Source: Candidatus Tectimicrobiota bacterium (GTDB taxonomy: Bacteria; JACPUC01). From it: DNA of 64,000 nucleotides. The DNA lies in NCBI GenBank assembly GCA_016192455.1, contig JACPUC010000009.1:62001-126000 (forward strand). Direction: 5' to 3'. The stretch's first letter is position 1; each line of letters starts with the position of its first letter. Positions 5,733 through 26,173 of this stretch are shown here, one piece after another. Position numbers and translations under genes: made by a program. Under the pieces are notes generated by a model. That model worked only from the letters and a program-made list of their open reading frames with translations, ran no database searches and was not told the origin of the DNA.

Positions 5733-6123
5733 CGCTGCCGGCGACGAGGCGGCGCGGACCTCGCCGCGGAGCCGGTGCCGGGCTGTCGGGGATGCCGGTC
5801 TCGGCGCCCGCCGATACCATCACCACTCAGCACGGGAGAGACGTTGTCCCTGCTTGTGGGCATGAGCAGGGGAGAGGGGTTCTGTGCGCTGCGGCCGCGG
5901 ACCACCGCCCAGGTTGGCGGTTCCCAGGTTCTTGGGTCACCCAGGTGCTGTTTCACAAATTCTATCGCAAGAATTTGCGAGGGAGCCTCGCCCCCTCGCG
6001 CACCCCGACTACGCGAGCTGCTGCGCAGCTCGCGGGGATTCGGGGGGTGGGGAAGCAAAGGTCTTGCGCAAAAACTCCCCGACCACATGGCCCGAAGAAG
6101 GCGTCCGATTAAGGATGGAATTT
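5733..6123. other. Intergenic region between regulator and UbiD gene
   Basis: No gene supported. A hairpin TCCCTGCT/AGCAGGGGA with a ten-base loop lies near 5849-5875 and may end the regulator transcript, although no T-tract follows. The right half is a copy of the modular palindromic repeat (5976-6080). I looked for a sigma-54 -24/-12 element and found no convincing one. Confidence 0.5.
5976..6080 (-). repeat. Modular palindromic repeat, copy C
   Basis: In minus orientation this matches the copies at 17.5 and 18.7 kb. The arm at 5976-6006 differs from theirs at one position over 31 bases. The core is CGCGAGCTGC / GCAGCTCGCG (6012-6034) with a three-base loop. The distal part (6050-6080) reads on the minus strand GGGGAGTTTTTGCGCAAGACC and resembles the left arm of copy A. 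Confidence 0.75.
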
Positions 6124-6137
6124 GTGTGACGTAACAC
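6124..6137. promoter_or_regulatory. Near-palindromic operator candidate upstream of UbiD gene 1
   Basis: GTGTGACGTAACAC is a 14-base near-perfect palindrome centred on ACGT, with one mismatched pair, ending 21 bases before the UbiD start codon. Its position suits a repressor site. The half-site resembles those of GntR- or CRP-type regulators, but the regulator cannot be named. Confidence 0.35.
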
Positions 6138-6158
6138 TAGTCAGGAGCGAGGTGCGGC

Positions 6159-7634
6159 ATGGCATTTCAGGATGGCTTGCGAGGCTGGATGAAGGCGCTC
6201 GAAAGCGAGGGGGAGCTGAAGGAGATCACCGCCGAGGTGGACTGGAACCTCGAGATGTCCGGCATCATGTGGCGCGCCTGCGAGGAGCACGGGCCGGCGC
6301 TCCTCTTCACCAACATCAAGGACCACCGCCACACCCTCTGCACGAAGTTCATCTCCGGCGCGCTGCACACCTATCGCCACGTCGCCCTCATGATGGGCCT
6401 GCCCAAGGAGACGCCGCCCAAGGAGCTCATCCTCGAGTACCGTCGGCGCACCGAGAAGCTTCTGCCCCCCGAGATCGTCGAGTACGGGCCGGTGAAAGAG
6501 AACATCATCCGCCGCGAGGCCGTGGACCTCTGGCAATTCCCGGCGCCCTTCTGGCACGCGCTGGACGGCGGACGCTACCTGAACACCTACTGCGGCACCG
6601 TCACCCAGGACCCCGACAACGGCTGGATCAACGTCGGCCTCTACCGCGGCATGGTGCATGACGACGGCAAGAGCATCGGCGTGCTCCTGTCGATGGGCTC
6701 GCACTGGGGACAGATGTGCCAGAAGTACCACGAGCGCGGCCAGGCCATGCCGGTGGCCGTCGTCTACGGCTGGGAGCCGGTGATGCCGCTCGTCGCCGCC
6801 GCTCTCTTCCCGCGCAACGTCGGCGAGTACGACGTCATGGGGGCGGTGCGCCAGAAGCCGGTGGAGCTGGTGAAGTGCGAGACGAACGACCTCCTCGTGC
6901 CGGCGACCGCCGAGATCGTCATCGAGGGCACGGTCTCCCTCGATCCCGCCACCTTCCGCATGGAAGGCCCCTTCGGCGAGTACCCCTGCTACTACGGCGG
7001 CACCCCAGCGCCGAAGCCGGTGCTGCAGGTCGACTGTATCACCCACCGCACCGATCCCATCCTGCAGGGCTCGCTGGAAGGCGCGCCCTACGACGACGGC
7101 GCCGTGGCGCAGTCGATCACCAAGTCGGCCTACATGTGGAACAACCTCGACCGCAATATCCCCGGCGTCGTCGATGTCTGGTGCCCCGCCATTACCCACG
7201 GCACCGACTGCTACGTCGCCATCAAGAAGACCTACCAGGGCCAGGCCAAGCAGGTGGCCGCCTGCATCTGGGGCAGCACCGGCGCCATCTACTCGGCGAA
7301 GATCGTCATGGTCGTCGATGACGATATCGACATCCGCAACCTCGAGGACATCCAGTGGGCCCTCAACTACCGCGTCTGGGACCCCGACGAAGACTTCTCT
7401 TTCTTCCGCGGCTGTCCCGGCTCCATGCTCGACCCCAGCGTGCCCCCGGAGCTGAAAGATGCGACCAAATTCGGCGCCGTGGGCCGCTGGCACCGCCTCT
7501 GCATCGACGCCACGAAGGACTGGCGCCTCACCCGCATCGAGCACTGGGGCGACCGCTTCCCGCCGCGCACCCTGCCCACGCGGCAGATTACGGAGCTGGT
7601 CAACCGCCGCTGGAAGGAGTATGGGCTGGGGTAG
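6159..7634 (+). CDS. UbiD-family prenylated-FMN-dependent decarboxylase 1
   Basis: 491 residues; the ATG is preceded by AGGAGCGAGG. UbiD enzymes use prenylated FMN and a metal to (de)carboxylate aromatic or alpha,beta-unsaturated acids. Seen here: INVGLYRG, placing the conserved Asn and Arg that bind metal/cofactor five residues apart, and EGPFGE with Glu269 and Glu274, the spacing of the catalytic glutamates in the fungal Fdc1 enzyme. The conserved core extends through to the C-terminal TRQITELVNRRWKEYGLG. No UbiX flavin prenyltransferase gene is in the window. A second family member lies 2 kb downstream, so both may serve one catabolic route. Substrate unknown. Confidence 0.9.
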   Translation: MAFQDGLRGWMKALESEGELKEITAEVDWNLEMSGIMWRACEEHGPALLFTNIKDHRHTLCTKFISGALHTYRHVALMMGLPKETPPKELILEYRRRTEKLLPPEIVEYGPVKENIIRREAVDLWQFPAPFWHALDGGRYLNTYCGTVTQDPDNGWINVGLYRGMVHDDGKSIGVLLSMGSHWGQMCQKYHERGQAMPVAVVYGWEPVMPLVAAALFPRNVGEYDVMGAVRQKPVELVKCETNDLLVPATAEIVIEGTVSLDPATFRMEGPFGEYPCYYGGTPAPKPVLQVDCITHRTDPILQGSLEGAPYDDGAVAQSITKSAYMWNNLDRNIPGVVDVWCPAITHGTDCYVAIKKTYQGQAKQVAACIWGSTGAIYSAKIVMVVDDDIDIRNLEDIQWALNYRVWDPDEDFSFFRGCPGSMLDPSVPPELKDATKFGAVGRWHRLCIDATKDWRLTRIEHWGDRFPPRTLPTRQITELVNRRWKEYGLG

Positions 7635-12350: not shown

Positions 12351-13106
12351 CGCCTGCCCCCCCTGAGTTAAGGCGAACGTTGGATACCACCCGTGCAGTC
12401 CGCGATCATGCCGCGCCACGTGGAGCGTCACAAGCGGGCGTCGCAAAAGATGATCTTTTCGGAACTCACACGGCTGGCCTGCAAGGCGAACGTGCTGCCG
12501 GGGTCACCCATGCAATGGTGAAGTTCCAGTACCCCTCGCGCGGTCTGGACGCCTGCCCATTGTCCTCGAAGTCCTGCCCATATCTGAATATACTAACCTC
12601 CTCTGCACCCCAAACTCAACCGCAAATTACGCGATTCTCCGCTGAGACCTGGCAAGGAGAGGTGGCGAGGTCCCCACGTCCGGTCAAGGTGGCCCTGGTG
12701 ATCTGCACCTCGTCGATATGCGGCGATTCAGCCTTGTTGCGGGAGGTGATCCGTGCCATGCTCAAGCTCCACCCTTGGCTTCTGCGTGGCCGGCCCCGCG
12801 CGATGTTGTAACTTCTGCAATTGCAACGTCTTCTCCCAAAGGGTGGTTCTTTTTCAAGGCGGAATCGCTGAGGGGAGGTCTCGGATTGGCAACGACGGCG
12901 CCAAGGTAGGTAACGAACCCAGTATCGTATCCCGTAAGTTCCATCAACCAATTCTAAGAGGGAACCTTCTCCCCTGGCGCACCCCGTTTACGCGAGCTGC
13001 TGCGCAGCCTGCGGGGAGGAGGGGTGTGGGGGAGCATGGGCCCTCACAGGCCCCTTGCCAAAGCAGCGAGCAACCCCGCACATATGTGAGCGAATTTGTG
13101 AGCACT
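12351..13106. other. Intergenic region upstream of the binding-protein gene
   Basis: No gene supported on either strand. The minus-strand promoter of the binding-protein gene should lie in the first 150 bases, but no clear -35/-10 pair was found. Copy D of the modular palindromic repeat occupies 12956-13040. Confidence 0.5.
12956..13040 (-). repeat. Modular palindromic repeat, copy D
   Basis: Minus orientation. The left part reads CCTGGCGCACCCCGTTTACG and the core CGCGAGCTGC / GCAGCCTGCG (12991-13014) has two mismatches compared with copy C. This is the most diverged of the five clear copies, but the arm, core and spacing are in the same order. Confidence 0.6.
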
Positions 13107-16554: not shown

Positions 16555-17199
16555 ATGTACGTCACGAAGCGGCAGCGGCAAATCTACGAGTTCATCAAGG
16601 CCAGCATCGAGACCAACGGCTACGCTCCCAGCCTGCAGGAAATCGGTGCTCAGTTCAACCTCTCCTCCCTCGCCACCATCCACAAGCACCTCACCAACCT
16701 GGAGGAGAAGGGCCTCATCGTGCGCCACTGGAACCGCAGCCGCGCCATCGAGCTGACCACCCCGCCAAGCCCCACCACCACGCAGCGCGGCGGCCGCCCC
16801 GTGTCCTCCGCCGTGGAGCTGCCGCTGCTCGGGCGCATCGCCGCCGGCCAGCCGCTGGAGGCCGTGCAGGACAGCGAGAGCATCCTCGTGCCGCCGGACA
16901 TGGTCGGCCGCCAGAAGACCTACGTCCTGCGCGTCACCGGCGACTCGATGATCGAGGAGCACATCCGCGAAGGGGACTACGTCATCGTCGAGGAGCGCCA
17001 AACCGCCTCGAACGGCGACACCGTCGTCGCCCTCATCGACGGCGACAGCGCCACGCTGAAGAAGTTCTTCCGCGAGGGCGACCGCATCCGCCTGCAGCCG
17101 GCCAACGCCACCATGCAGCCGATCTACGTCACCGGCGACCGCCTCGCCATCCAGGGCATCGTCATCGGCATCCTGCGGAAGTACCGGGCCGGGAGGTAG
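16555..17199 (+). CDS. lexA: LexA repressor
   Basis: 214 residues. The N-terminal winged helix-turn-helix (1-65; PSLQEIGAQFNLSSLATIHKHL) binds operators. The C-terminal S24 peptidase-like domain shows the cleavage dipeptide Ala97-Gly98 in GRIAAGQP, nucleophile Ser131 (VTGDSMIEEHI) and general base Lys169 (ATLKKF). RecA filaments trigger self-cleavage, derepressing SOS genes. Nearby dinB and, further away, recN and recQ are possible targets. Autoregulation is usual, but no operator was identified. Confidence 0.97.
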   Translation: MYVTKRQRQIYEFIKASIETNGYAPSLQEIGAQFNLSSLATIHKHLTNLEEKGLIVRHWNRSRAIELTTPPSPTTTQRGGRPVSSAVELPLLGRIAAGQPLEAVQDSESILVPPDMVGRQKTYVLRVTGDSMIEEHIREGDYVIVEERQTASNGDTVVALIDGDSATLKKFFREGDRIRLQPANATMQPIYVTGDRLAIQGIVIGILRKYRAGR

Positions 17200-17211
17200 G
17201 GAGGCGACGTG

Positions 17212-17460
17212 ATGCTTTGGAAGGAACGCAATCAGGTGAAGCGCCGGATGTGGGGGCTGACGCTTAGGCGGCAGATGCGGCGGCTGCCGCTGCCGAGCGT
17301 GCTGGAGGCGGCCGAGCTGCGGCGCCGGCGGCAGGCGCAGCTCATCGCCCTGGCGCTGGCGGCCGAAAGCGGCGCGCGACAATTCCACAATGGAAGCAAG
17401 CCGCCATCATCCATGAACGTGGCCAATGCCCGCTCGTGTTGCTTCGCAAACGTCCGCTAA
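17212..17460 (+). CDS. Small basic ORF after lexA, possibly truncated
   Basis: 82 codons starting at an ATG (GTG at 17209 also possible) 12 bases past the lexA stop, with GGGAGGC as ribosome-binding site. Residues 1-57 are Arg/Leu-rich and helical-looking (LRRQMRRLPLPSVLEAAELRRRRQAQL). The last 25 residues look random and run up to the palindromic repeat. It may be the 5' part of a gene cut off when the repeat and methyltransferase gene arrived. No homologue is recognised; it could also be non-coding. Confidence 0.35.
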   Translation: MLWKERNQVKRRMWGLTLRRQMRRLPLPSVLEAAELRRRRQAQLIALALAAESGARQFHNGSKPPSSMNVANARSCCFANVR

Positions 17461-17470
17461 TAAATTGGAT

Positions 17471-17605
17471 GCGTTGCAGGCGACATTTTTGTGGGGGACC
17501 CTTGCTCCCCTGCCGCCCCAGCGGGGAAGGCTCCACGCCCATTCCCCGCGAGCTGCGCAGCAGCTCGCGGAGAAGGGGTGCGCGAGGGGGCGCGGCTCCC
17601 TCGCA
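17471..17605 (+). repeat. Modular palindromic repeat, copy A (left of DNA methyltransferase)
   Basis: Left arm CGTTGCAGG, then GTGGGGGACCCTTGCTCCC. The core is a perfect 11-base inverted repeat CCGCGAGCTGC / GCAGCTCGCGG (17546-17570) with a three-base loop. The right arm (17574-17605) is identical over 32 bases to 18715-18746. It lies 53 bases before the methyltransferase start. Confidence 0.85.
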
Positions 17606-17658
17606 CGAAAACTCCCTTCGCCAGAACCAGTATTCGCTCTTCGCTCGCGGGATAACCT

Positions 17659-18534
17659 ATGAAGCAAAAACTCCCGTCACAAATTTACCTCGATGAAAAG
17701 TCGCTACACCATGACAATGGCAGCATTGCACGCCGCCGCTCGAAACTCATCGCCTTCGGTTGGTATGGTGGTAAGTTCAATCACCTCAATTGGCTGCTTC
17801 CTTTATTGCCGAGGTGCCATCATTATTGCGAGCCGTTTGCCGGCTCAGCCGCGGTCCTGTTCAATCGTGATCCCTCTCCTGTTGAAACGTACAACGATCT
17901 TGATGGCGAGGTCGTCAACTTTTTCCGTGTCTTGCGCGAGCAGAAAGAGAAGCTGCTCGAGTCCATAGGGCTTACGCCATTTTCCAGGGAAGAATTCTAC
18001 TTTGCCGTAACGGATAGCGAAGAACCGTTATCCGATTTGGAACACGCGCGCCGTTTCTTTGTGCGGGCGCGACAGGCGCGCACGGGTCTGGCGCAAACCG
18101 CCTCGCTCGGGCGCTGGGCGAACTGCAAGAACACCAGCCGCGCCGGCATGTCCGGGGTGGTATCGCGCTGGCTCGGCAGCGTGGAGATGCTGCCGGAAAT
18201 CGCCGCGCGCCTCCTGCGTGTGCAGATCGAAAACCGCCCGGCGGTGGATGCCATTCGCTTGTATGACAGCCCTTCGACCCTGTTTTACTGCGATCCGCCG
18301 TATGTTCACGACAGCCGCGGCGACAGCAAAGCTTACGGTTTCGAGATGAATGACCTCGCGCACCAGGAGCTGGCGCGGCTCCTTCAGCAGTGCAAGGGGA
18401 TGGTCGCTCTTTCGGGGTATCGTTGCGATCTGCTGGATTCCGTCTATAAAGACTGGCGCCGCCATGACGCCCCTGCGAAATACTGCCACTCCATCAAGAA
18501 ACCGCGTCAGGAGGCGCTCTGGGTGAACTATTAA
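17659..18534 (+). CDS. DNA adenine methyltransferase, Dam/D12 class
   Basis: 291 residues. It has the class order of Dam-type N6-adenine methyltransferases: WYGGKFNHLNWLLPLLP (lysine-bearing N-terminal motif), EPFAGSAAVLFN (AdoMet binding) and catalytic DPPY at 212-215. It transfers a methyl group from S-adenosylmethionine to adenine in DNA. No restriction endonuclease gene is adjacent, so it looks like an orphan enzyme. Base composition of the first 400 bases is visibly lower in GC than its neighbours, and the gene is bracketed by repeat copies A and B within a lexA-dinB locus. Both suggest acquisition by transfer. The ribosome-binding site is weak. Target sequence unknown. Confidence 0.9.
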   Translation: MKQKLPSQIYLDEKSLHHDNGSIARRRSKLIAFGWYGGKFNHLNWLLPLLPRCHHYCEPFAGSAAVLFNRDPSPVETYNDLDGEVVNFFRVLREQKEKLLESIGLTPFSREEFYFAVTDSEEPLSDLEHARRFFVRARQARTGLAQTASLGRWANCKNTSRAGMSGVVSRWLGSVEMLPEIAARLLRVQIENRPAVDAIRLYDSPSTLFYCDPPYVHDSRGDSKAYGFEMNDLAHQELARLLQQCKGMVALSGYRCDLLDSVYKDWRRHDAPAKYCHSIKKPRQEALWVNY

Positions 18535-18606
18535 CGCTTGCTGAGTCGCGACATGCTTGTTGATTATGCTAGTAGTGCGTCTCACGAGTTCGTTGATACA
18601 TTTAAT

Positions 18607-18746
18607 TCGTTGCAGGTGGCATTGGCAGGAAGATTTCTTGTGGGGAACCCTTGCTCCCGCACATTCCCAATCCGCGCGAGCGGTAGGGGCGGTTCACGAA
18701 CCGCCCCTACGAGTAGGGGTGCGCGAGGGGGCGCGGCTCCCTCGCA
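18607..18746 (+). repeat. Modular palindromic repeat, copy B (right of DNA methyltransferase)
   Basis: Same orientation and same outer parts as copy A: CGTTGCAGG, then GTGGGGAACCCTTGCTCCC, and the 32-base identical right arm (18715-18746). The GAGCTGC core is replaced by a different palindrome of the GTAGGGGCGG family (18683-18710). Confidence 0.85.
18683..18710. repeat. GTAGGGGCGGTTC palindrome inside copy B
   Basis: 28 bases, palindromic except for one central pair: GTAGGGGCGGTTC, then A/C at the centre, then GAACCGCCCCTAC. It differs by one base from the perfect copy at 26035-26062. Confidence 0.85.
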
Positions 18747-18899
18747 GAAAAACTGTCTAAGATTGGCAACAATCTTGCTAATTTCGTTAATGAACGTATG
18801 AGGCAGGAAATTAGGAAATCAACGCCCCCCTTCTCGCTGCCGCGCAGGCGTGGCGGCGCCGGAAGGAGTGGGGGGGCCTGCCTCGCCAGAAGATCACCC

Positions 18900-20180
18900 A
18901 TGCGGCAGATTCTCCATGTTGACATGGATACGTTCTTCGTGGCGGTGGAGCAGCGCCTCGATCCGTCGCTGCTCGGCAAGCCGGTCATCGTCGGCGGGCA
19001 TCCCGAGGGGCGCGGCGTGGTGGCGGCGTGCTCCTACGAGGCCCGCGCCTTCGGCGTGCACTCCGCCATGCCGCTGGCGCAGGCTTTGCGCCTCTGCCCG
19101 CGCGCCGTCTTCCTGCGCGGCGCCTATGACAACTACCTGCGCGCCAGCCTGGAAGTCTTCCGCATCCTGAAGCAGTTCACCCCCCTCGTCGAGCCGACCT
19201 CCCTCGACGAGGCGTACCTCGACGTCAGCGCCTGCCTGCGCCTGCACGGCCATGCCATGGCGATCGCGGAGACGATCCACGAGCGCATCGCCGGGCGGCT
19301 GGCGCTGCCCGCCTCGGTGGGTCTCGCCACCAGCAAGATCGTGGCCAAGGTGGCCTCGCGGCGCGCCAAGCCGAACGGCATCCTGCGCGTCCTTCCCGGC
19401 GCGGAGGCGGCGTTCCTGGCGCCGCTCTCCCTGCGCGAGCTGCCGGGCATCGGGCCGAGCACGGCGGAGCGCCTCCAGAGCCTCGGCCTGCGCGCCATCG
19501 GCGAGCTGGCGCACCTGCCGCCCGCCATGCTCGAGACCGTCTTCGGCAAGACAGGTCGCCTGCTGACGCAGCGCGCCCGCGGCATCGACGCCTCCCCCGT
19601 GGTCACCGGCTCCGTGGTCAAGTCGGTCGGCCACGAAACCACCTTTGAAACGGATACCGCCGACCGCGGGGAGCTCGAAGCGGTCCTCGCCCACCTCACC
19701 GAGAAGGCCACGCGCCGCCTGCGCCGCCTCCCCATGCAGGCCCGGACCGTCACCCTGAAGCTGCGCTACGCCGATTTCACGACCGTCAGCCGCTCCCGCA
19801 CCCTGCGCGCCGCCACCGACCTCGACACCGAGGTCTATCGCACCGCCGGCCGCCTCCTGCGCAGCCTGTTGACGCGCCGCGTGCGCGTCCGCCTCCTCGG
19901 CGTCAGCCTCTCGAACCTCTGCGAGGGCGAGCGCCAGCTCGACCTCTTCGGCGAGGGGCGCTGCGCCAAGTACCGCGGCTTCTACCGCGCCGTCGATACC
20001 CTGCGGGACCGGTTTGGCTTCGATGTGGTGACCGTGGGGCGCGCCGCCCTCTTGCAGCCGGCCGCGCGGCGGGGCGAGCGCCACCTCAACCCGTTTCGAC
20101 CCGCGCTTGACCAGGAAGAGAGGAAGAAGGGAGAGGGCACGCCGGAGGAGGGCGGGCCGTCGTTCCAGGACGCGGCCTGA
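18900..20180 (+). CDS. dinB: DNA polymerase IV (Y family)
   Basis: 426 residues from the ATG at 18900, which gives the canonical DinB start MRQILHVDMDTFFV; an ATG at 18798 would add 34 unconserved residues. Catalytic acids are Asp8 and the SLDEAYLDVS motif. Palm, fingers, thumb (LRELPGIGPSTAERLQSLG helix-hairpin-helix) and little-finger domains follow. The C-terminus ends in an acidic/charged tail (EERKKGEGTPEEGG) rather than a recognisable beta-clamp motif; QLDLF (near 346) is the probable clamp-binding peptide. It performs error-prone bypass of lesions and is normally SOS-induced, consistent with lexA 1.7 kb upstream. Confidence 0.95.
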   Translation: MRQILHVDMDTFFVAVEQRLDPSLLGKPVIVGGHPEGRGVVAACSYEARAFGVHSAMPLAQALRLCPRAVFLRGAYDNYLRASLEVFRILKQFTPLVEPTSLDEAYLDVSACLRLHGHAMAIAETIHERIAGRLALPASVGLATSKIVAKVASRRAKPNGILRVLPGAEAAFLAPLSLRELPGIGPSTAERLQSLGLRAIGELAHLPPAMLETVFGKTGRLLTQRARGIDASPVVTGSVVKSVGHETTFETDTADRGELEAVLAHLTEKATRRLRRLPMQARTVTLKLRYADFTTVSRSRTLRAATDLDTEVYRTAGRLLRSLLTRRVRVRLLGVSLSNLCEGERQLDLFGEGRCAKYRGFYRAVDTLRDRFGFDVVTVGRAALLQPAARRGERHLNPFRPALDQEERKKGEGTPEEGGPSFQDAA

Positions 20181-23774: not shown

Positions 23775-23984
23775 ACCCTGCTCCCGCGACCTCGCTGCCC
23801 TCTTACTTCTGCTATCGCCGGGCCTCAAACCTGGGGGATCATTGATCCCCCAGACCCCCTCTCCTCGCGAGCTGCGCCGCAGCTCGCGTAAGCGGGGTGC
23901 GCGAGGGGAGATTGTCCCCTCGCATCATTTCTTCGCTGCATCGAAGTGTGGAACCTTGGTCCGCGAGTTTCTAAGGCGCGACGA
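23775..23984. other. purH-purD intergenic region with hairpins
   Basis: 210 bases, almost half occupied by repeat copy E. A perfect 23-base hairpin CTGGGGGATCA / TGATCCCCCAG (23831-23853, one-base centre) lies downstream of purH on the transcribed strand and could stabilise or attenuate the purH transcript. Confidence 0.6.
23831..23924 (+). repeat. Modular palindromic repeat, copy E
   Basis: Core CGCGAGCTGCG / CGCAGCTCGCG (23866-23888, one-base centre), then the right arm CGGGGTGCGCGAGGGG ending in CCCCTCGCA. The left arm is replaced by a perfect hairpin around GGGGGATCA. The order and spacing match copies A-D. Confidence 0.8.
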
Positions 23985-25928: not shown

Positions 25929-26034
25929 GCTCTGCACATCCCGCCGCTGTACCACGCACGGCGGCAAACCTGCAAGCTCGTGAAATCAACCACTTAGACG
26001 GCTAGTTCCGAGGCAGGGTTCCATCCCATCGACC

Positions 26035-26062
26035 GTAGGGGCGGTTCGCGAACCGCCCCTAC
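26035..26062. repeat. Perfect 28-base palindrome, GTAGGGGCGGTTCG family
   Basis: GTAGGGGCGGTTCG followed by its exact reverse complement. One base different from the palindrome embedded in repeat copy B at 18683-18710, showing that this unit occurs alone as well as inside the larger element. Confidence 0.9.
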
Positions 26063-26173
26063 CATCGGCATGCAAGGACCCGTGGAGGGAGGCTGAGATC
26101 GGTGTGCGTCCGTGTCGAGCGGTGGTTCCTTCCGCTCCCTTCTCCGTGTCGTCTGTGTCTCGGCGGTGCACTC

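What the first reader, a model, noticed from the sequence alone, without database searches (positions are those of the whole stretch)
17471..18746. Orphan Dam-type methyltransferase bracketed by two copies of a palindromic repeat inside a lexA-dinB locus
Copies A (17471-17605) and B (18607-18746) lie in direct orientation on either side of the methyltransferase gene and share a right arm identical over 32 bases. The gene is less GC-rich than its surroundings and splits what looks like a lexA - small ORF - dinB mutagenesis unit; the small ORF seems to end in non-coding sequence at the repeat. This is what a cassette moved by, or between, the repeats would leave. An orphan adenine methyltransferase next to lexA could also tie methylation to SOS control. 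Sequence features are seen; the mobility model is inference.
Basis: partly seen in the sequence, partly recalled or inferred. Interest (0 to 1): 0.75.

Follow-up and report, generated by a model that had tools for sequence, protein, structure and literature searches.

The report
Leftover methylase of lost restriction system
The gene between lexA and dinB is the DNA-marking half of a transferred bacterial restriction-modification (DNA self-defence) system whose DNA-cutting half is gone; the two flanking repeats belong to a family with more than 84 copies in the genome and are not shown to have moved it.

Summary
The two repeats are degenerate copies of a dispersed MITE-like family: 84 core matches in the 4.46-Mb genome, none for the reversed control. 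Four copy pairs lie within 1.2 kb (1.8 expected). Another direct pair, 1,244 bp apart, brackets atpC, so bracketing does not mark a cassette.

The methyltransferase is not Dam. It belongs to a patchily spread D12 clade: 62-73% identical relatives on plasmids of Agrobacterium, Nostoc and Aeromonas, in viral contigs and in 7 of about 385 other genomes. All 7 genome relatives, and nearly all plasmid and viral-contig relatives, carry a SacI-family endonuclease gene directly downstream. Here that gene is gone (profile search: 0 hits in this genome, 7 of 7 positive controls), and a repeat starts 31 bp after the methyltransferase stop codon. GC3 is the lowest of 36 window genes. Best reading: an imported type II R-M system inserted between lexA and dinB that lost its nuclease.

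New lead: CAGCTG is nearly erased from this genome (37 sites in 4.46 Mb) and is the palindrome whose avoidance best separates genomes carrying this R-M pair from others. CAGCTG is therefore the predicted target, not GATC. No support was found for SOS control.

The parts
16555..17199 (+). lexA, SOS repressor (214 aa), intact
   Evidence: TIGR00498 E 5.9e-60 above cut-off; PF00717 and PF01726
17209..17460 (+). 83-aa ORF of unknown function, possibly not a gene; its last ~13 codons lie in repeat A
   Evidence: no Pfam, NCBIfam or PHROG match; no homologue in 109 other lexA loci; overlap with the element from 17422
   Evidence: nhmmer E 2.5e-43, profile positions 53-224 of 282; end sequences; RNA fold z -4.2
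17659..18534 (+). D12 N6-adenine DNA methyltransferase (291 aa), modification gene of an R-M system of the D12 + SacI-family type; catalytic motifs intact (EPFAGS, DPPY)
   Evidence: PF02086 E 2.2e-22, phrog_56 E 2.7e-64, PADLOC MTase_II E 2.7e-56; relatives 58-73% identical
18535..18564 (+). 30-bp spacer where the endonuclease gene begins in relatives; no remnant of it found
   Evidence: tblastn of 18 SacI-family endonucleases against the flanks gave nothing significant
18565..18785 (+). repeat B: MITE-like copy, left terminal repeat good (CTAGTAGTGCGTCTCACGAGTTC), right end diverged (18772-18785 inferred); carries the alternative middle palindrome GTAGGGGCGGTTCACGAACCGCCCCTAC
   Evidence: nhmmer E 4.8e-42, match 18565-18771; RNA fold z -3.9
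18900..20180 (+). dinB, DNA polymerase IV (427 aa from this ATG; an in-frame start at 18798 also exists)
   Evidence: PF00817, PF11799; NF002677 above cut-off
5930..6161 (-). near full-length copy of the same repeat family elsewhere in the window
   Evidence: nhmmer E 4e-72
12916..13103 (-). further degenerate copy of the repeat family
   Evidence: nhmmer E 6.7e-23
23832..23908 (+). partial copy (inner hairpin part) of the repeat family
   Evidence: nhmmer E 7.4e-18

Best explanation
The methyltransferase is the surviving modification gene of a horizontally acquired type II restriction-modification system made of a D12 N6-adenine methyltransferase followed by a SacI-family endonuclease. The system entered between lexA and dinB. 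The endonuclease gene was then lost, and a MITE copy (repeat B) now occupies the place right after the methyltransferase stop. Its predicted target is CAGCTG, methylated on the adenine, not GATC. While the nuclease was active, CAGCTG sites were selected out of the genome; what remains is a methylase whose own target has almost disappeared. The two repeats are independent insertions of a dispersed element family. They may have helped remove the nuclease (insertion at the M/R junction, or recombination between direct copies) but did not carry the gene in as a cassette. Shown: gene family, the paired endonuclease in relatives, its absence here, foreign composition, dispersed repeats, CAGCTG depletion and its statistical link to the R-M pair. 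Inferred: loss rather than never having the nuclease, the role of repeat B, target specificity, present activity.
For: All 7 genome relatives out of 386 genomes searched (window genome included), in 7 families, have the endonuclease gene next to the methyltransferase. So do 7 of 10 IMG/VR relatives and the 7 closest plasmid relatives, annotated SacI family or, in Calothrix, at the same position. PF09566 matches three of four endonucleases tested above its cut-off. A profile of the endonuclease finds it in 7 of 7 control genomes and not in the window's genome. The methyltransferase is compositionally foreign, patchily distributed (8 of 386) and present on archaeal and bacterial plasmids. CAGCTG: 0 in the window against 34 expected, 3 in 221 kb against 126 expected, the most avoided of all 4096 hexamers; 37 in the whole genome against 1009 for reversed GTCGAC and 2216 for GAGCTC. 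Among 64 palindromes CAGCTG best separates the 7 R-M genomes from 32 controls (p 8e-5, next 2e-3), and still ranks first in 43 of 60 equal-size resamplings. Whole-genome density is lower in R-M genomes (p 0.002). Site avoidance as a trace of lost R-M systems is established (PMC4687349).
Against: Three phage relatives lack an adjacent endonuclease, so a solitary phage origin is possible; the tree does not place the window protein firmly. The MAG is 88% complete. CAGCTG is also scarce in some genomes without the methyltransferase, for example a congener of G119 and a family member of G150, and G016 carries the pair with only mild avoidance (114 of 183). The comparison with the reversed word as control is not significant (p 0.18). 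The foreign composition suggests a rather recent arrival, whereas erasing CAGCTG needs long residence.
Confidence: 0.7

Rival explanations
1. Composite cassette: the two repeats act as the ends of one mobile unit that carried the methyltransferase into the lexA-dinB locus, as two MITE copies do in TIME-COMP structures.
For: Direct orientation on both sides, foreign composition. Precedent for MITE-bounded composite elements (PMC13367494).
Against: 84 or more dispersed copies; pair spacing near chance and another direct pair brackets atpC; the unit exists once; A lacks its right terminal repeat and no enclosing target duplication is seen; none of the relatives' R-M genes is known to be flanked by this repeat.
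Confidence: 0.08
2. Solitary phage-type methyltransferase: the gene came from a phage that used it for anti-restriction and never had a nuclease in this lineage.
For: Three IMG/VR phage contigs carry solitary members (L158, L162, L164); one of them (L162) is 73% identical.
Against: No other phage gene lies nearby in the window stretch read; all seven cellular relatives are paired with the nuclease; the nearest rows by tree path are nuclease-linked, though weakly supported; strong CAGCTG erasure needs a nuclease, not a methylase.
Confidence: 0.17
3. Target is GAGCTC (as in SacI) and CAGCTG depletion comes from another, unrelated R-M system such as a PvuII-like one.
For: The partner nuclease is SacI family, and SacI cuts GAGCTC (general knowledge). 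GAGCTC is mildly avoided here (0.54) and nearly absent in R-M genome G047 (29 in 5.0 Mb). Known CAGCTG methylases of Salmonella are m4C enzymes (PMC4490842).
Against: GAGCTC is abundant in this genome (2216 sites) and separates R-M genomes from controls much less well (p 0.03 against 8e-5).
Confidence: 0.25
4. Domesticated regulatory methylase tied to the SOS response through its place between lexA and dinB.
For: Same strand and position downstream of lexA; open reading frame and conserved residues intact.
Against: No recognised LexA box near it, two structured repeats separate it from lexA and dinB, no orthologue at any other lexA locus examined.
Confidence: 0.06

Closest known systems
Type II R-M systems of the D12 methyltransferase + SacI-family endonuclease type (e.g. 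pAtCFBP6626a of Agrobacterium, pTCL26-01_B of Nostoc, pKAM339_3 of Aeromonas)
   Same: Methyltransferase 65-72% identical over nearly its whole length, same conserved motifs and, in most, the same N-terminal extension
   Different: No endonuclease gene downstream or anywhere in the genome; lies in a chromosomal lexA-dinB locus between MITE copies
Dam and DpnM family methyltransferases (TIGR00571; PDB 2g1p, 4rtj, 2dpm)
   Same: Same D12 fold class, weak profile match (E about 1e-12)
   Different: Below the Dam model cut-off; clade is linked to a SacI-family nuclease; predicted target CAGCTG rather than GATC
Bacterial MITEs and repetitive extragenic palindromes
   Same: Short, non-coding, terminal inverted repeats of about 20 bp, many dispersed copies, strong hairpins
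   Different: No autonomous element or transposase with the same ends was found; middle palindrome exists in two interchangeable forms
TIME-COMP (MITE-bounded composite elements, PMC13367494)
   Same: A gene between two directly repeated MITE copies
   Different: No second copy of the unit and no enclosing target duplication; another such pair brackets a housekeeping gene
Traces of lost R-M systems seen as avoided sites (PMC4687349)
   Same: A palindrome is strongly depleted while no matching nuclease is found in the genome
   Different: Here the methyltransferase is still present and points to the candidate system

Membership tests
Type II R-M system (orthodox) | methyltransferase gene of the matching clade, intact | tested here: met
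   PF02086 E 2.2e-22; PADLOC MTase_II E 2.7e-56; all columns invariant in 14 relatives kept
Type II R-M system (orthodox) | cognate endonuclease gene adjacent or elsewhere in the genome | tested here: not met
   absent with 7 of 7 positive controls; no remnant in the flanks; genome 88% complete
Type II R-M system (orthodox) | methylase and nuclease share one target | not testable with these tools
   CAGCTG avoidance is indirect
Dam (GATC) methyltransferase | score above the curated Dam model cut-off | tested here: not met
   72.5 bits against 114.85
Dam (GATC) methyltransferase | methylates GATC | not testable with these tools
   no methylation data
MITE (the repeats) | multiple dispersed non-coding copies | tested here: met
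   84 places of the 27-nt core, 0 for the reversed control
MITE (the repeats) | terminal inverted repeats | tested here: met
   GTGTTRCGTCWCACAARTTC and GTGTGCTGTTTCACAAATTC at the two ends of full-length copies
MITE (the repeats) | target-site duplication | tested here: inconclusive
   CTAG-like ends on many copies but no consistent duplication
MITE (the repeats) | autonomous element with the same ends | tested here: inconclusive
   the six unpaired end matches examined all lie at further copies of the family; whole genome not read
Composite MITE cassette (TIME-COMP-like) | unit with outer target duplication or a second copy elsewhere | tested here: not met
   single copy; no duplication seen
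SOS-regulated gene | LexA box upstream | tested here: inconclusive
   no perfect match to nine known consensus motifs, also not upstream of lexA itself; this phylum's box is unknown

The most novel reading that the evidence does not exclude
A retained CAGCTG-specific N6-adenine methylase in a genome that has purged its target to about 37 sites in 4.46 Mb: the enzyme outlived its nuclease and now marks only a few dozen places, either as a sparse regulatory mark or as insurance against return of the same nuclease. It would also be the first m6A, D12-class and SacI-family route to the PvuII word.
Probability: 0.2. Interest if true: 0.6.

Novelty: new member of a known kind. Interest (0 to 1): 0.4.

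Why it matters
It shows how a repeat-bracketed orphan gene next to lexA can look like a designed cassette and still be an R-M remnant beside ordinary dispersed repeats. It assigns a testable target (CAGCTG) to an uncharacterised D12 + SacI-family R-M clade that spans archaea, cyanobacteria and proteobacteria, and gives a possible snapshot of what follows loss of a nuclease: methylase retained, sites erased.

Tried and rejected
No genome of the same phylum is held, so no empty site or direct ancestor could be compared; the single scan of genome contigs with LexA found only other phyla. PF09566 as such was too weak a probe (control silent) and was replaced by a profile of eight endonucleases with positive controls. 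Remnants of the endonuclease in the flanks: none. Autonomous transposase behind the repeats: unpaired end matches turned out to be further copies. Tree of the methyltransferase: position of the window protein not resolved. GATC-directed Dam reading rejected on the curated cut-off. A first DinB query was one base out of frame and was repeated correctly. The R profile in 26 CAGCTG-poor and 26 CAGCTG-rich genomes gave 3 against 0 partial matches, too few to use. Papers on the SacI-family pair or PF09566: none held.

Full report
Observation. The window lies at G000:C8:62001-126000 of a 4.46-Mb, 88%-complete MAG. LexA (16555-17199), an 83-aa ORF (17209-17460), repeat A, a D12 methyltransferase (17659-18534), repeat B and dinB (18900-20180) follow each other on the + strand. 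The repeats share 32 identical bases as stated.

What the repeats are. The 27-nt core of the shared arm occurs at 84 places in the genome with up to 3 mismatches, against 0 for the reversed word. Aligning copies gives an element of about 205-230 bp with imperfect 20-bp terminal inverted repeats (GTGTTRCGTCWCACAARTTC / GTGTGCTGTTTCACAAATTC), usually with CTAG or a close variant at the ends. It folds into strong hairpins (z about -4). The middle palindrome exists in two exchangeable forms, GCGAGCTGCGCAGCAGCTCGC-like in 32 copies and GTAGGGGCGGTTCGCGAACCGCCCCTAC-like in 18. It behaves like a MITE family, although no autonomous partner and no consistent target duplication were found. A and B are old, degenerate copies (E 2.5e-43 and 4.8e-42 against 1.7e-75 for the best), and A has lost its right end. 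The window holds three further copies.

Is the bracketing special? With 84 copies, 1.8 neighbouring pairs within 1,141 bp are expected and 4 are seen, so there is mild clustering at most. Another pair in direct orientation, 1,244 bp apart, encloses atpC and a DUF2203 gene, plainly not a mobile cassette. The methyltransferase has no second copy. The repeats therefore do not support transport of the gene.

What the methyltransferase is. It matches PF02086, phrog_56 and PADLOC type II methyltransferase models, and fails the Dam model cut-off. Relatives at 58-73% identity lie on plasmids of Agrobacterium, Nostoc, Calothrix, Aeromonas, Comamonas and a haloarchaeon, in IMG/VR contigs and in 7 of 385 other whole genomes, each from a different family. 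This is the pattern of a horizontally moving gene. In all seven genomes, in seven of ten IMG/VR contigs and on the closest plasmids, the next gene downstream is an endonuclease of the SacI family. Three phage contigs have it alone. The window protein keeps every residue invariant across 14 relatives, including the EPF.GS and DPPY motifs. Its GC3 of 0.69 is the lowest of 36 window ORFs.

Loss of the nuclease. A profile of eight endonucleases finds the gene in all seven genomes known to have it and not in the window's genome. No remnant lies in the flanks. Repeat B begins 31 bp after the methyltransferase stop, where the endonuclease gene starts in relatives. Insertion of, or recombination at, that repeat is a natural way to lose it, but this step is inferred.

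The locus. In loci of other phyla dinB follows lexA at 21-139 bp on the same strand in eight cases and at about 450-560 bp in three more. A lexA-dinB unit is thus common, and 1.7 kb of extra DNA here is unusual. No genome of the same phylum is held, so the empty site could not be shown directly. The 83-aa ORF has no counterpart in 109 other lexA loci and ends in repeat A.

Target specificity. The word CAGCTG is absent from the window (34 expected), occurs 3 times in 221 kb of own DNA (126 expected; 2 against 85 with repeats masked), and is the most depleted of all 4096 hexamers. The whole genome has 37, against 1009 of reversed GTCGAC and 2216 GAGCTC. Among 154 genomes this is the second-lowest density, and genomes with the R-M pair are lower than others (p 0.002; 3 of the 7 are among the lowest six). 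With a Markov expectation, CAGCTG separates the 7 R-M genomes from 32 controls better than any other of the 64 palindromes (p 8e-5; median observed/expected 0.25 against 0.79; next word 2e-3). With equal sample sizes it still ranks first in 43 of 60 resamplings. I therefore predict CAGCTG as the target. Limits: some genomes without the pair also lack CAGCTG, G016 avoids it only mildly, the comparison with reversed GTCGAC is not significant (p 0.18), the genomes are not fully independent samples, and SacI itself cuts GAGCTC. PMC4687349 reports that avoided sites are frequently traces of lost R-M systems. CAGCTG methylation known from Salmonella is m4C (PMC4490842), so an m6A enzyme for this word would be a different solution.

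Verdict. An imported type II R-M system reduced to its methyltransferase is the best reading (0.7). Phage-type solitary origin (0.17) and a different target with an unrelated source of CAGCTG avoidance (0.25, not exclusive of the main reading) remain open. The repeat-driven cassette (0.08) and SOS regulation (0.06) lack support.

Noticed in passing
whole window and genome G000: CAGCTG is nearly erased: 0 in the window, 37 in 4.46 Mb; the most depleted hexamer of all.
   Followed up: yes
18681-18710 and 26032-26063 (window): The palindrome GTAGGGGCGGTTCGCGAACCGCCCCTAC occurs both inside repeat B and free-standing at 26032, so the middle hairpin of the MITE-like family may itself be an independent dispersed element that swaps in.
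   Followed up: partly
L022 281-1449 (G000:C1:363240-365081): A second direct pair of the same repeats, 1.2 kb apart, encloses atpC and a DUF2203 gene.
   Followed up: yes
L224 3328-4461 (Calothrix plasmid AP018278.1): The endonuclease position of the R-M pair is annotated as a D12 methyltransferase, probably a misannotation of the SacI-family nuclease.
   Followed up: no
L207 and L222: Aeromonas and Comamonas plasmids from Japan and China carry the same R-M pair; in the Aeromonas plasmid it sits next to an integron with GES-24.
   Followed up: no
G047 whole genome: GAGCTC is nearly absent (29 in 5.0 Mb) in a genome with the R-M pair, so targets may differ between subclades.
   Followed up: no
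G323, G127, G261 (L328-L330): Partial SacI-family-like nuclease matches, one with stop codons, occur in three CAGCTG-poor genomes and in none of 26 CAGCTG-rich ones.
   Followed up: no
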